A stretch of DNA of 64,000 nucleotides from Lactiplantibacillus plajomi (GTDB taxonomy: Bacteria; Bacillota; Bacilli; Lactobacillales; Lactobacillaceae). The position numbers and the translations under genes were made by a program. The notes under the pieces were generated by a model that was not told where the DNA came from, ran no database searches, and worked only from the letters and a program-made list of their open reading frames with translations. Each line of letters starts with the position of its first letter. The first letter of the stretch is position 1. Below, piece after piece: positions 17,141 to 58,390 of this stretch. The stretch is from positions 1 through 64,000 of the forward strand of contig NZ_BJDZ01000011.1 in NCBI RefSeq assembly GCF_005405405.1, written 5' to 3'.

Positions 17141-18118
17141 ATGATGCAAACCATTTGGCAACCTAATAGCCCCGTTCAAGCCCAGCTGGCGGCGTTAAAG
17201 CCTTACCTTGCTAAGCACGTCCAAATCGATAACGGCCCGATTAACGACCGCGTACATACCCTACTTGCCGCCGGTGGCAAGTTTTTACGGCCGGGCTTTT
17301 TCTACCTTTTTAGTCAGTTCGGCCATGACCAGGAGCCGGACCGCCTACGCGCCGGTGCCGCCGCCATGGAACTATTACACGTCGCCACGCTAATTCACGA
17401 CGACGTCATCGACCAATCGTCCAAGCGGCGCAACGTGACCACGATTCACCAGGATTACGGCCAACGTAACGCCATTTACGCGGGTGACCTACTCTTCACC
17501 TGCTACTTCGACCAAGTCCTGCTCGCCGCTAAATCCGCCGCCGACATTCAAGCTAACACGGCCGCCATGCGCGCCATTTTACAAGGCGAGCTCGACCAAA
17601 TGGCCCACAACTTTAAACCGCAAACCACCGTTGACGACTACCTCAAAGTCGCCCGCGGCAAAACCGCGCGGCTCTTCAGCCTCAGTTGTGAACAAGGCGC
17701 CCACCTCGCCGACGCACCACTAGCCGTCGTCAACCTTGCCAAACGAATTGGTGAAGACCTCGGCATTGCCTACCAAATGCTCGACGACGTCCTCGACTTC
17801 GCCGGCAAAACCGACCTAACCAAAAAACCGGTCCTAACCGACCTAAAAGACGGCGTTTACTCACTACCACTGATCTACGCCCTTGACGCCCAGCCCGCAC
17901 TGGCCCAGCAGCTCCCAATGCCCGGTGATACCGTCACTAACGACCAGCTTCACCTGATTCGCGACCAAGTCCTGCTCGCCGGTGGCGTCACCAAGGCCCA
18001 AGCCTTAGCCAAAACTTACACCGACGAAGCACTTGACCTAATCGATCAACTGCCCGCCGGTAATACCCAACAACAGCTCCACCACCTCGTTGTTCAACTG
18101 CTCGACCGCAACCACTAA
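17141..18118 (+). CDS. Polyprenyl diphosphate synthase (quinone side chain)
   Basis: A 325-residue trans-polyprenyl synthase. The two aspartate-rich motifs are visible: IHDDVID near residue 85 and LDDVLD near residue 210. It condenses isopentenyl diphosphate onto an allylic primer to build the side chain that MenA transfers. GGAGGAAG precedes the start. It is divergent from menA, with about 140 bases between them, and ends in a terminator. Chain length (hepta, hexa or other) cannot be deduced by eye. Confidence 0.9.
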   Translation: MMQTIWQPNSPVQAQLAALKPYLAKHVQIDNGPINDRVHTLLAAGGKFLRPGFFYLFSQFGHDQEPDRLRAGAAAMELLHVATLIHDDVIDQSSKRRNVTTIHQDYGQRNAIYAGDLLFTCYFDQVLLAAKSAADIQANTAAMRAILQGELDQMAHNFKPQTTVDDYLKVARGKTARLFSLSCEQGAHLADAPLAVVNLAKRIGEDLGIAYQMLDDVLDFAGKTDLTKKPVLTDLKDGVYSLPLIYALDAQPALAQQLPMPGDTVTNDQLHLIRDQVLLAGGVTKAQALAKTYTDEALDLIDQLPAGNTQQQLHHLVVQLLDRNH

Positions 18119-18162: not shown

Positions 18163-18301
18163 AAATACTTTTAAAACGCTGTATTAAATAGCCGTTGCCA
18201 TCTTTATCCTTAAGGGGTACCGCATTAGCATTACTAGCCAGATAAAAAACCGCATCTCATGCTAGTTCGAGTTTATCGATTCCAAGCTAGTGTTTCCTTG
18301 C

Positions 18302-18485
18302 CAGCCTTCCGGTCAGTGGGAATCAGTCCGGAACACGGTGGCCACGGGGTTAAGCCCAAAACCCGGGTCTTAACCACCGGGCTTTCACTAACTCGCCAAA
18401 ACCCGGCGACCAAGTGAAATTTCACCGCTGGGACTGTTCCCACTTTCCCTCCAGGCTTTGACAGATTGTTGGCGGGCGGTAGTGG
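18302..18485 (+). ncRNA. Structured RNA candidate A1
   Basis: About 184 nt, matched by A2 327 bases downstream at roughly four fifths identity by eye. A closing helix of 14 bp pairs 18315-18329 with 18430-18444 (one bulged base). Inside it, GGTTAAG (18348-18354) pairs with CTTAACC (18369-18375), and TTTCACT (18383-18389) with AGTGAAA (18413-18419), which encloses CGCC/GGCG. One closing-helix pair is T-A here and C-G in A2, a compensatory change. A conserved tail follows the closing helix. No start-to-stop frame is shared between copies. The strand is not settled for A; plus is assumed from the B pair. No clear promoter or terminator. Confidence 0.6.
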
Positions 18486-18628
18486 TTAAATTTTATTTAT
18501 AAGAAACAGTAAATAGATACGCTGTTATATTTTTTTGTTGAGTACACAGGATTAGACGTACTAAACAGATGGCTAACAGCACTTCATCCTAGTAGTTGGT
18601 GATCGATTCGAAGTTTGTAATCACTTAC

Positions 18629-18812
18629 CACCCTTCCGGTCAGCGGGAATCAGTCCGGAACGCGGTGGCCGCGGGGTTAAGCCCAAAGTGCAGGTCTTAA
18701 CCACCGGGCTTTCACTAACCCGCCAAAAAACGGCGAGCAAGTGAAATTTCACCGCTGGGACTGTTCCCGCTTTCCCTCCTGGCTTGAACTGGTCGTTGGC
18801 GGGCAGTAACGA
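18629..18812 (+). ncRNA. Structured RNA candidate A2
   Basis: Second copy of the A element. The closing helix pairs 18642-18656 with 18757-18771; position 18644 (C) pairs with 18769 (G) where A1 has T-A. GGTTAAG at 18675-18681 pairs with CTTAACC at 18696-18702, while the loop between them differs from A1. The TTTCACT/AGTGAAA helix and CGCC/GGCG tip are kept. Sequence flanking the two copies is unrelated, so the conserved unit is the structured part alone. Confidence 0.6.
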
Positions 18813-18867
18813 GCTAATTTTTATGAACGGGTTGAGTTAGTCTGGTGATTAATTATCGAATGGTGGT

Positions 18868-18882
18868 CACTATTTATAAAAC
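18868..18882 (+). repeat. 15-bp repeat CACTATTTATAAAAC, copy 1
   Basis: CACTATTTATAAAAC occurs here, 56 bases after A2, and again at 19209-19223 just after B1. Its AT-rich core could be part of a promoter or a transcript end. I see no other relation between the two flanks. Confidence 0.4.
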
Positions 18883-19041
18883 TCGGCGTTTCTGAATCCG
18901 GTCATCTAGAATGACTAATCAACGTTAAATATCGCTGGGGTTTAAATTGATTTTCTGCTAAGGTGTCCAAGATTAATGAATTGACTACTAATTGTGTGGC
19001 TAGTTCATTAAAACAGTCACGTTATTAGTTATAGTGATGTT

Positions 19042-19205
19042 ATCGAGGTCCCGGAGCCCTTCGAAACATGGCTGTGAAATTGTTGTTGGTCGTCGTACTT
19101 TGACGACTTACAACAAGGCCGTCTCGGGAGACGATTCGGTGTTTGAATTGGCTTCCTAGCGTGCCCACAGCCTTGCTTTCGTGTTGGCGGAGCGGACCGG
19201 TATAT
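19042..19205 (+). ncRNA. Structured RNA candidate B1
   Basis: About 164 nt, matched by B2 272 bases downstream at more than four fifths identity. GGTCC (19047-19051) pairs with GGACC (19194-19198); inside, GGCTGTG (19070-19076) pairs with CACAGCC (19166-19172). A long hairpin then runs from TTGTTG at 19080 to CAACAA at 19116, followed by a small CGTCT/AGACG hairpin. In the long hairpin the tip GTCGTC/GACGAC is replaced by GTCGCC/GGCGAC in B2, a T-A to C-G swap. G-T pairs in B1 where B2 has A-T point to the plus strand. The 60-codon minus-strand open frame over it is not credible. Confidence 0.62.
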
Positions 19206-19208
19206 TGG

Positions 19209-19223
19209 CACTATTTATAAAAC
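19209..19223 (+). repeat. 15-bp repeat CACTATTTATAAAAC, copy 2
   Basis: Identical to 18868-18882. Here it starts 11 bases after the GGACC closing strand of B1. Confidence 0.4.
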
Positions 19224-19313
19224 CTTGTAGTTGTTTTGCATAATAAGGACGGTTCATCCAATATGTGTGGGTTTCTGTTTAGTATACAAATGGTCGTTGA
19301 TTGATGTGCTGTG

Positions 19314-19477
19314 ATCAAGGTCCCGGAGCCCTTCGAAACATGGCTGTGAAATTGTTGTAAGTCGCCGTTTTTGGGCGACTTACAACAAGGTCGTCTTGGG
19401 AGACAATTCGGGGTGTGAATTGGCTTCCAAGCGTGCCCACAGCCTTGCTTTCGTGCAGGCGGAGCGGACCGGCGTGT
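19314..19477 (+). ncRNA. Structured RNA candidate B2
   Basis: Second copy of the B element. GGTCC (19319-19323) pairs with GGACC (19466-19470), and GGCTGTG (19342-19348) with CACAGCC (19438-19444). The central hairpin is perfect here: TTGTTGTAAGTCGCC against GGCGACTTACAACAA, 15 bp. The small GTCT/AGAC hairpin and an ATTC/GAAT pairing after it are also conserved. It lies about 110 bases before the cydC terminator, in a convergent intergenic region. No strong intrinsic terminator follows; only T-rich sequence near 19493. Confidence 0.62.
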
Positions 19478-19595
19478 TGACAGTATTCCAATAATTTTTG
19501 AATTTTATTGTAGTAGTATTTTTTGAATAGAGGTGATTGTTAACGGAGCAAGATGTTAGTCACATTTTTAAACGGGATGAAGTGGTTTACAAAAA

Positions 19596-19638
19596 AACAC
19601 AGTTCTAAGTAATCAGCGGGATTGCTTAGAACTGTGTT
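19596..19638 (-). terminator. Terminator of the cyd operon
   Basis: A perfect 14-bp stem (AACACAGTTCTAAG with its complement) is followed by seven T on the minus strand, 20 bases beyond the cydC stop. Confidence 0.85.
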
Positions 19639-19657
19639 TGGTTAGTCAAGAATTGAG

Positions 19658-21403
19658 TTAAGCTTCACGGCCACGGTCGAGATCGTATAGCCGTTTAAAC
19701 CGTGGTGCGGTTTGGTATAGTTCGTCCGGCGTACCGGCCATGTCGAACGCACCGTCTTCGAGAAACCGAACTTGGTCGACGTTTTCGACGCCGGCCAGGT
19801 GGTGGGTCACCCACAAAATCGTTTTATCCTGAAGAACCCGGAAAACGGTTGCCAACAAGTGCGACTCGGTGATGGGATCCAGGCTAACGGTCGGTTCATC
19901 TAGGATGATAATCGGCGCGTCTTGTAACAGAATTCGGGCTAACGCTAATCGCTGACGTTCACCACCAGAGAAACGGGCGCCTCCCTCTTCAACAATGGTA
20001 TCGTAGCCGTCTGGTAGGCCCTGAATCAGTGGTTCAAGTTCAACCGCTTTGAGGGCGGCTTTGACCTGGTCATCACTGGCATCCTCATTACCCATCCGAA
20101 CGTTGTTCATAATGGTTGTGTTAAACAGGTACGGTTGTTGATCAAGCACCCCGAATAACTGGGCCCGTTGATTTTGTAGCCGGCTAATTGGAACGTCATT
20201 AAGTTGAACGTCGCCACTGGTTGGTTGCAGATCACCCAAAATCAATTTAAGTAAGGTACTCTTCCCCGTTCCGGACGGGCCGAGCAACGCAACCTTTTCA
20301 CCGGCCTTTAAAGTTAGGTCGAGGTGGTTAAAGATTTGGCGGTGCCCACCGGGATAGGCGAAGTCCAAATCGGCTACCTGGAGCATTTGAAACGGTTCGG
20401 TCAGTACCGTTTGATCGTGGTCATCGGTGGGCGCCGTATCCAGCGCGTTGACCCGGCGGATCGAACGCTGGTAACTTGGCCACTCGCTGACCCCCTGGCT
20501 GACCGATTGAAAGGCGTCGACCAGCGGAAAGACGGACAGGACGAAGGCTGCGACCCAGTTCGAACTAGCCGAGTTGGTCGTCCAATAAAAGCTGCTCCAA
20601 ATTAGGAGTGCAATGCAAACCACGCCAAAAATCAGTTGAATGGTGAAATCGCGCCACCACTGGAACTGGTGGTCTTTGCGACGCAACGCCGCGATTTCAG
20701 CAATTGGCTTAGTCTGACGTTGGTAAAAATCCTTTTGCCGACCAGCAATTAGCCAATCGCCCAGGCCCATGACTGAATCAGTCAGTTGGGTGTAAAAGCC
20801 TTGCTGAATTTGCCGGCTCTGGGTCTCGCGCGCACCGTTGATCAACACTGACCAGAGTGGCATGACGATGACCACTAACCCAAGCAGCACGAGCATCAGC
20901 AAGCCGAACCACCAGCTAAAGTAGCCCAATGCGATAATGATCAACACGTACATCATTAGGGCAATGACGGTTGGGAATACCGTTCTTAAATATAAATTTT
21001 CGATATGGTCAATATCATCCGCTAACAGGCTTAAAACGTCACCAGTCTGGAAATTTTGGCGAATGGCGACCGCGTGTTTCTCAACGGCTTGGTAGAGCTT
21101 TTTGCGAAAGTCGGAAACAATTCGCAACACCCAGTTATGACTGGTAATCCGTTCCGCGTACCGGAAAGCCGGCCGGCCAATCCCGAACGCCCGCGTTAAC
21201 ACGATTGGGACGTAGATCATCAAAATGTTGTAGGGATGCCGGGCGGCCTTACTAATTAAGTAGCCGGAGTTAAACATTAACGCCGACCCACAGAAAAAGG
21301 TCATTAAACCGAGAAACAGCGTTAAAGCCAGCAATTTTTTATACTTACGTAGGTACGGCATCACCCACGTATCGTGTTTAAAAGTAGCAAAGAAATCTTT
21401 CAT
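19658..21403 (-). CDS. cydC: Thiol reductant ABC exporter subunit CydC
   Basis: A 581-residue ABC half-transporter: about six membrane segments in residues 1-310, then an ATPase domain with Walker A GPSGTGKST, signature FSGGERQR and Walker B IIILDEPTVSLD. With CydD it forms the CydDC exporter (glutathione/cysteine, heme-linked) needed to assemble cytochrome bd. It overlaps the cydD stop by one base (TAATG). It is the last gene of cydABDC. Confidence 0.93.
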   Translation of the reverse strand: MKDFFATFKHDTWVMPYLRKYKKLLALTLFLGLMTFFCGSALMFNSGYLISKAARHPYNILMIYVPIVLTRAFGIGRPAFRYAERITSHNWVLRIVSDFRKKLYQAVEKHAVAIRQNFQTGDVLSLLADDIDHIENLYLRTVFPTVIALMMYVLIIIALGYFSWWFGLLMLVLLGLVVIVMPLWSVLINGARETQSRQIQQGFYTQLTDSVMGLGDWLIAGRQKDFYQRQTKPIAEIAALRRKDHQFQWWRDFTIQLIFGVVCIALLIWSSFYWTTNSASSNWVAAFVLSVFPLVDAFQSVSQGVSEWPSYQRSIRRVNALDTAPTDDHDQTVLTEPFQMLQVADLDFAYPGGHRQIFNHLDLTLKAGEKVALLGPSGTGKSTLLKLILGDLQPTSGDVQLNDVPISRLQNQRAQLFGVLDQQPYLFNTTIMNNVRMGNEDASDDQVKAALKAVELEPLIQGLPDGYDTIVEEGGARFSGGERQRLALARILLQDAPIIILDEPTVSLDPITESHLLATVFRVLQDKTILWVTHHLAGVENVDQVRFLEDGAFDMAGTPDELYQTAPRFKRLYDLDRGREA

Positions 21404-58282: not shown

Positions 58283-58390
58283 GTTGTGTTCCTCCATTTT
58301 CTGTGTTTGTTTGACACTCAATAAGATTTCCGGGGCTTATCGTGGGGCAAACAATACCAACGATTAGTTTACCTAACTTCTGATCAGAAG

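What the first reader, a model, noticed from the sequence alone, without database searches (positions are those of the whole stretch)
18302..19477. Two pairs of structured RNA-like repeats with compensatory base changes
A protein-free region between convergent genes carries A1/A2 (about 184 nt, 327 bp apart) and B1/B2 (about 164 nt, 272 bp apart). Copies differ in flanks and loops but keep helices. In A the closing 14-bp helix swaps T-A (18317/18442) for C-G (18644/18769). In B the central hairpin swaps GTCGTC/GACGAC for GTCGCC/GGCGAC, and G-T versus A-T differences point to the plus strand. A folds as a multi-branch structure, unlike the single long hairpin of 6S RNA. Doubling of two different RNA types side by side is unusual and I know no family that fits.
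Basis: partly seen in the sequence, partly recalled or inferred. Interest (0 to 1): 0.85.

Follow-up and report, generated by a model that had tools for sequence, protein, structure and literature searches.

The report
Invertible mobile element with paired RNA folds
The four folded repeats are copies of one previously unnamed RNA-like structure, carried in back-to-back pairs on a transposon-like piece of DNA that is scattered through many Lactobacillus-family genomes and that, at many sites, has flipped over in place; what the folded part does is unknown.

Summary
A1/A2 and B1/B2 are real and strongly structured, and no Rfam family matches. They are not two RNA types: a covariance model built only from A-type sequences finds B full length (E about 1e-17). 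A folds on the minus strand and B on the plus strand, so the locus reads <-A <-A B-> B->. The module is one family in 87 of 301 Lactobacillaceae genomes (14 of 40 genera). Over 123 modules, 97.2% of cells pair, 36 of 38 pairs show two-sided changes, and the covariation score is 0.70 against 0.19 shuffled.

The locus is one of about a dozen copies of a dispersed, protein-free element in this genome. In related species the element has terminal inverted repeats (CGC[AG]TTGTGCTAGTTA...), 9-10 bp target duplications and a clean empty site, so it behaves like a MITE. Unexpectedly, at 9 of 14 sites occupied in two species it lies inverted in place; in the five junction sets examined the switch lies in an inner palindrome of the terminal repeat. 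At shared sites the modules diverge 6-7% and the spacer 18%, so resident copies appear constrained.

Transcription, the mobilising enzyme, the cause of inversion and the module's function are not shown.

The parts
18222..19560 (.). Approximate extent of the dispersed element in this window (<-A <-A B-> B->). Ends are estimates from similarity to other copies; the terminal repeats and target duplication of this copy were not resolved.
   Evidence: the orthologous gap is 216 bp in G006 against 1544 bp here
18301..18465 (-). Structured module A1 (model core 18314-18443): outer helix P1, then a three-way junction with hairpins P2 and P3
   Evidence: R1 135.1 bits; fold -77.3 kcal/mol, z -6.8
18628..18792 (-). 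Structured module A2 (model core 18641-18770), tandem to A1
   Evidence: R1 135.6 bits; fold -80.9 kcal/mol, z -7.3
18803..19037 (.). Spacer between the divergent A and B modules; less conserved than the modules
   Evidence: alignment; in relatives the spacer diverges about 3 times faster than the modules
19047..19205 (+). Structured module B1 (model core 19056-19190), same family as A, opposite strand
   Evidence: R1 69.2 bits, E 4e-17; fold -67.3 on + against -53.3 on -
19319..19477 (+). Structured module B2 (model core 19328-19462)
   Evidence: R1 73.0 bits, E 3e-18; fold -75.6 on + against -66.1 on -
17141..18118 (+). Flanking gene, polyprenyl synthase-like (by reading), ends about 100 bp before the estimated element
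19658..21403 (-). Flanking gene, CydC-like ABC transporter (by reading), convergent to the left gene

Best explanation
The locus is a copy of a MITE-like, non-coding mobile element family of Lactobacillaceae whose payload is a pair (here a doubled pair) of divergently oriented copies of one conserved structured module of about 150 nt: a long helix closing a three-way junction with conserved GUGAAA and CACC junction letters. SHOWN: one family; strand-specific covarying fold; dispersal; terminal inverted repeats and 9-10 bp target duplication (in relatives); in-place inversion; slower divergence of modules than spacer at shared sites. INFERRED: transposition in trans by a DDE-type transposase acting on the terminal repeats; inversion by recombination at the inner palindrome of the terminal repeats; and that the module acts as RNA, transcribed outward from the spacer, so that each inversion exchanges which module faces which neighbouring gene. 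The most likely role is an RNA bound by a host or element protein, serving either the element's own maintenance or the expression of its neighbours; I put the RNA-level reading at about 0.6.
For: One family: R1 from A-only sequences finds B and C modules full length. Covariation over 123 modules: 97.2% of cells paired, 1205 double-change cells against 308 in shuffles, no slid register above 47% paired. Strand: G-U 162 cells against A-C 36, the same direction in A, B and C, which a symmetric cruciform would not give. Dispersal: 12 loci in the own genome; 87 of 301 family genomes; in an order-wide sample only Lactobacillaceae hits. Mobility: terminal repeat 69 times in G013 and 53 in G016 against 0 and 1 for the reversed control; clean empty site with 9-bp duplication TACTACTTA; further duplications L229 9/9, L237 10/10, L225 and L235 8/9. 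Inversion. Constraint: modules 5.8% and 7.2%, spacer 18.0% at 8 shared sites.
Against: No transcript data. Promoter-like sites upstream are only slightly enriched (19 of 123 against 12.1 +/- 2.9) and no terminator-like T run follows the modules. In compact copies only about 35-60 bp separate the modules, little room for two promoters. No autonomous partner or invertase was found; the one wide pair of terminal repeats examined encloses ordinary genes. Terminal repeats and duplication were resolved in the G013/G016 type, not in the window's own copy.
Confidence: 0.62

Rival explanations
1. The module works as DNA: one strand folds when single-stranded (replication or transposition) and is bound by the transposase or recombinase, so the pair is simply a structured long terminal inverted repeat needed for movement and flipping.
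For: Modules sit just inside both terminal repeats in inverted orientation; in every divergent pair seen the order is the same; the fold is also strong with DNA parameters (z -6.0 to -7.8 on the better strand); G-T is also the best tolerated DNA mismatch (general knowledge); promoter and terminator signals are weak.
Against: Target duplication of 9-10 bp points to double-strand (DDE) transposition, which needs no folded strand. The flips switch at the terminal repeats, outside the modules. Modules stay conserved in copies that have not moved.
Confidence: 0.28
2. The module is a host ncRNA gene family that happened to be picked up and spread by a transposon; copies now serve the host.
For: Slow divergence of resident copies; one site occupied in four species (L059, L172, L070, L074); the orthologous polyprenyl synthase-cydC gap holds members in several species.
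Against: Copy number differs greatly between related species, some genomes show none (G018, G019), and no single-copy ancestral locus was seen.
Confidence: 0.07
3. Two unrelated ncRNA genes were each duplicated locally.
For: A and B have little plain sequence similarity and each is doubled here.
Against: Same family by covariance model; whole element dispersed in the genome; empty site in the nearest relative.
Confidence: 0.01
4. On the narrower question of how the flips arise: the in-place inversions are ordinary homologous recombination between the terminal repeats, with no dedicated enzyme (compatible with the best explanation).
For: The terminal repeats are about 55 bp, imperfect, and the switch lies in their best conserved stretch; species-level time is ample for rare events.
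Against: The switch lies in the same short palindrome (ATGATTAAATCATG type) at both ends in the five loci examined, although the outer repeat is also well matched.
Confidence: 0.45

Closest known systems
[quoted passage not shown]
   Same: Non-coding, multi-copy, intergenic, terminal inverted repeats, target duplication, empty sites.
   Different: Long (about 400-1080 bp between terminal repeats), holds two divergent copies of a covarying multi-branch module conserved across genera, and is found inverted in place.
REPINs / BIMEs (PMC3116915 seen; detail from general knowledge)
   Same: Two inverted structured units per element, dispersed between genes.
   Different: REP units are about 20-30 nt simple hairpins mobilised by a RAYT; here the units are about 150-nt three-way junctions and there is a 9-10 bp target duplication.
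BOX elements of Streptococcus pneumoniae (general knowledge)
   Same: Modular, dispersed, structured, non-coding, with variable module number.
   Different: Modules are about 50 bp and of different kinds; here all modules are one family in divergent orientation. No sequence comparison was made.
IS110 bridge RNA and IS200/IS605 omega RNA, including HEARO (general knowledge)
   Same: Structured RNA of 100-200 nt tied to a mobile element.
   Different: No recombinase or nuclease gene in the element, a target duplication is present, and loops do not vary like guides; no Rfam match.
Invertons (phase-variable invertible DNA; general knowledge)
   Same: Segment between inverted repeats flips in place.
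   Different: Known invertons mostly carry a promoter and are few per genome; here about 30 or more dispersed elements share the same ends and carry structured modules. Flipping within a population was not tested.

Membership tests
MITE | Terminal inverted repeats | tested here: met
   CGC[AG]TTGTGCTAGTTA plus inner palindrome at both ends of G013/G016 elements; not resolved for the window's own copy
MITE | Target-site duplication and empty site | tested here: met
   L208 against G016: 9 bp TACTACTTA; L229, L237, L225, L235. Many older copies show none.
MITE | Multi-copy, no transposase gene | tested here: met
MITE | Related autonomous element with the same ends | tested here: inconclusive
   None found in G013/G016
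Any Rfam 15 family (6S, HEARO, riboswitches, introns) | Covariance-model match at gathering score | tested here: not met
Structured RNA family | Covariation above background | tested here: met
   (A3 is fitted to the model; A1 is a plain MAFFT alignment and gives 26 of 37 pairs with two-sided changes)
Structured RNA family | Transcription | not testable with these tools
   Only weak promoter enrichment
REPIN/RAYT | Short REP units about 20-30 nt in inverted pairs | tested here: not met
   Units are about 150 nt
IS110 bridge-RNA element | Recombinase ORF in the element | tested here: not met
   No such ORF between modules or terminal repeats in the copies read
BOX element | boxA/boxB/boxC sequence modules | not tested
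   No BOX sequence was compared
Inverton | Segment found in both orientations between inverted repeats | tested here: met
   9 of 14 shared sites inverted between species
Inverton | Both orientations within one population; dedicated recombinase | not testable with these tools
   No reads available

The most novel reading that the evidence does not exclude
A new class of selfish or domesticated RNA element: dozens of invertible DNA cassettes per genome, each expressing two divergent copies of a conserved three-way-junction RNA that is recognised by a host or transposon protein, so that flipping the cassette changes which RNA faces each neighbouring gene.
Probability: 0.25. Interest if true: 0.92.

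Novelty: new variant of a known kind. Interest (0 to 1): 0.77.

Why it matters
These elements lie in the genomes of widely used food and probiotic lactobacilli and appear not to be described in the libraries searched. They give a large natural set of structured modules (123 aligned here) with strong covariation, and a natural experiment in which the same insertion is found in both orientations in sister species. If the modules are RNAs, this is a new RNA family tied to a transposon; if they are DNA signals, it is a transposon end of unusual design. Either way a simple expression experiment decides. It also cautions against reading dispersed structured repeats as pairs of unrelated ncRNA genes.

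Tried and rejected
Rfam at gathering and relaxed thresholds: only sub-threshold microRNA, snoRNA, sRNA and plastid hits. The window element against phages and plasmids: none; the G015 element against phages: none; against plasmids: 26 records. ORFs inside the two stretched copies (L014, L019): ordinary genes or short ORFs. Widest terminal-repeat pair in G013 (3.9 kb) as an autonomous element: LysR-like and transporter-like genes instead. Promoter and terminator scans: chance level in the window, weak enrichment over 123 modules. Preference for convergent genes: none in G013 (13 co-directional, 4 convergent, 3 divergent). Literature: no description found in seven searches of open-licence papers; the 224-motif structured-RNA paper was not held. 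Guide-RNA idea: the P3 loop varies by only a few bases between copies in one genome (alignment), so rejected.

Full report
OBSERVATION. The repeats, spacings and named base swaps are exactly as described. Each module folds much better than dinucleotide shuffles. Rfam release 15 has nothing for the region.

ONE FAMILY, TWO STRANDS. A folds better and carries its G-U pairs on the minus strand, B on the plus strand. A covariance model built from 38 A-type sequences only finds B1 and B2 full length on the plus strand with 69 and 73 bits, and A1 and A2 on the minus strand with 135 bits; no other member lies in the 64-kb window. So the locus is <-A <-A B-> B->, with one shared architecture: outer helix P1, a GUGAAA junction strand, hairpin P2, hairpin P3, then the closing CACC strand. 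The doubling is not peculiar to this locus: left-hand and right-hand A copies of different loci share their own flanking sequence, so the doubled form was itself dispersed (alignment, my reading).

COVARIATION. On a plain alignment of 43 A modules, 26 of 37 predicted pairs have two-sided changes, several with all four Watson-Crick types. On 123 modules from the family search, 97.2% of cells pair, 36 of 38 pairs have two-sided changes, and the covariation score is 0.701 against 0.191 for shuffles and at most 0.11 for slid registers. That alignment is fitted to the model and leans towards it; the plain one does not. G-U cells exceed A-C cells 162 to 36, in the same direction for A, B and C. A symmetric cruciform would not give this; a single folded strand, RNA or DNA, would.

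DISPERSAL. The own genome holds about a dozen such loci, 78-89% identical, in each case with A before B on one strand where both are present. R1 matches 87 of 301 Lactobacillaceae genomes, 14 of 40 genera; at most 11 candidates per genome were scored, so copy numbers are minima. An order-wide sample of 298 genomes gave 10 with a match, all in this family. Exact-pattern hits in named genomes are in Lactiplantibacillus, Levilactobacillus, Companilactobacillus, Secundilactobacillus and Limosilactobacillus; modules also occur on Lactiplantibacillus and Ligilactobacillus plasmids. Two-sided pairs are divergent; spacing between module cores ranges from about 60 bp to about 580 bp.

MOBILITY. The repeat occurs 69 and 53 times, the reversed control 0 and 1. 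For L208 the G016 site is empty and the element is flanked by the 9-bp duplication TACTACTTA; four other elements show 8-10 matching bases. No transposase was found with these ends.

INVERSION. Between G013 and G016, 13 sites are occupied in both with flanks mostly 86-98% identical. The element is collinear at five (L190/L150, L201/L168, L204/L187, L065/L188, L241/L152) and inverted at eight (L059/L172, L064/L159, L191/L163, L195/L154, L199/L160, L206/L156, L223/L178, L228/L153). A further inverted pair is L074/L070 in G011 and G015, whose assemblies have 7 and 2 contigs; L059 has the same flanks as L074, so this site is occupied in four species and differs in orientation within both pairs compared. 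Inverted copies are up to 94% identical to their ortholog, which excludes independent insertion for the clearest cases. In the five loci examined base by base the switch from flank-collinear to inverted lies in the inner part of the terminal repeat, at both ends. Assembly error is possible for the draft G016 but unlikely for G011/G015. Whether flipping happens within a population is unknown.

CONSTRAINT. At eight shared sites A and C modules diverge 5.8% and 7.2%, spacers 18.0%. Within modules 41 of 570 compared pairs changed; 25 of these stayed paired, including 11 double changes, and 16 had an unpaired state in at least one species. Purifying selection on resident copies is the simplest reading; gene conversion between copies is not excluded.

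WHAT IS NOT SHOWN. Transcription, the mobilising enzyme, the mechanism of inversion and the module's function. Promoter-like sites upstream are weakly enriched and terminators are not seen. For the window's own copy, ends and target duplication were not resolved.

JUDGEMENT. It works like a MITE and, over evolutionary time, like an inverton, and carries a structured module that belongs to no Rfam family. I rate it a new variant of a known kind, with a real chance that it is a new class of RNA-bearing element.

Noticed in passing
window 58300-58358 (-): Ribosomal protein L13 leader, the only Rfam gathering-level match in the window.
   Followed up: no
window 19595-19639: A 45-bp near-perfect inverted repeat between the element and the cydC-like gene, probably a terminator of that gene.
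   Followed up: no
L079 977-1140 (-) and 1209-1329 (+): In G012 the same intergenic region holds a diverged structured pair with long outer helices; the left member matches R1 weakly (28 bits) and the right one is below significance, so a distant subfamily is possible.
   Followed up: partly
L225 3817-3992, L227 1206-1381, L234 749-924, L237 1341-1516, L240 1742-1917: A longer (176-nt) module variant opposite C in elements of about 1.07 kb in G013/G016.
   Followed up: no
L014 2647-8042: Two A modules and a B fragment are separated by 4.8 kb holding an ion-transporter-like, a flavoprotein-like and a LysR-like gene; the element may have been split by an insertion.
   Followed up: partly
L041 2172-2335: An A module whose P3 and closing strand are replaced by a different perfect hairpin (AGTCCCAACTAGCC/GGTTAGTTGGGACT), an apparent disruption.
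   Followed up: no
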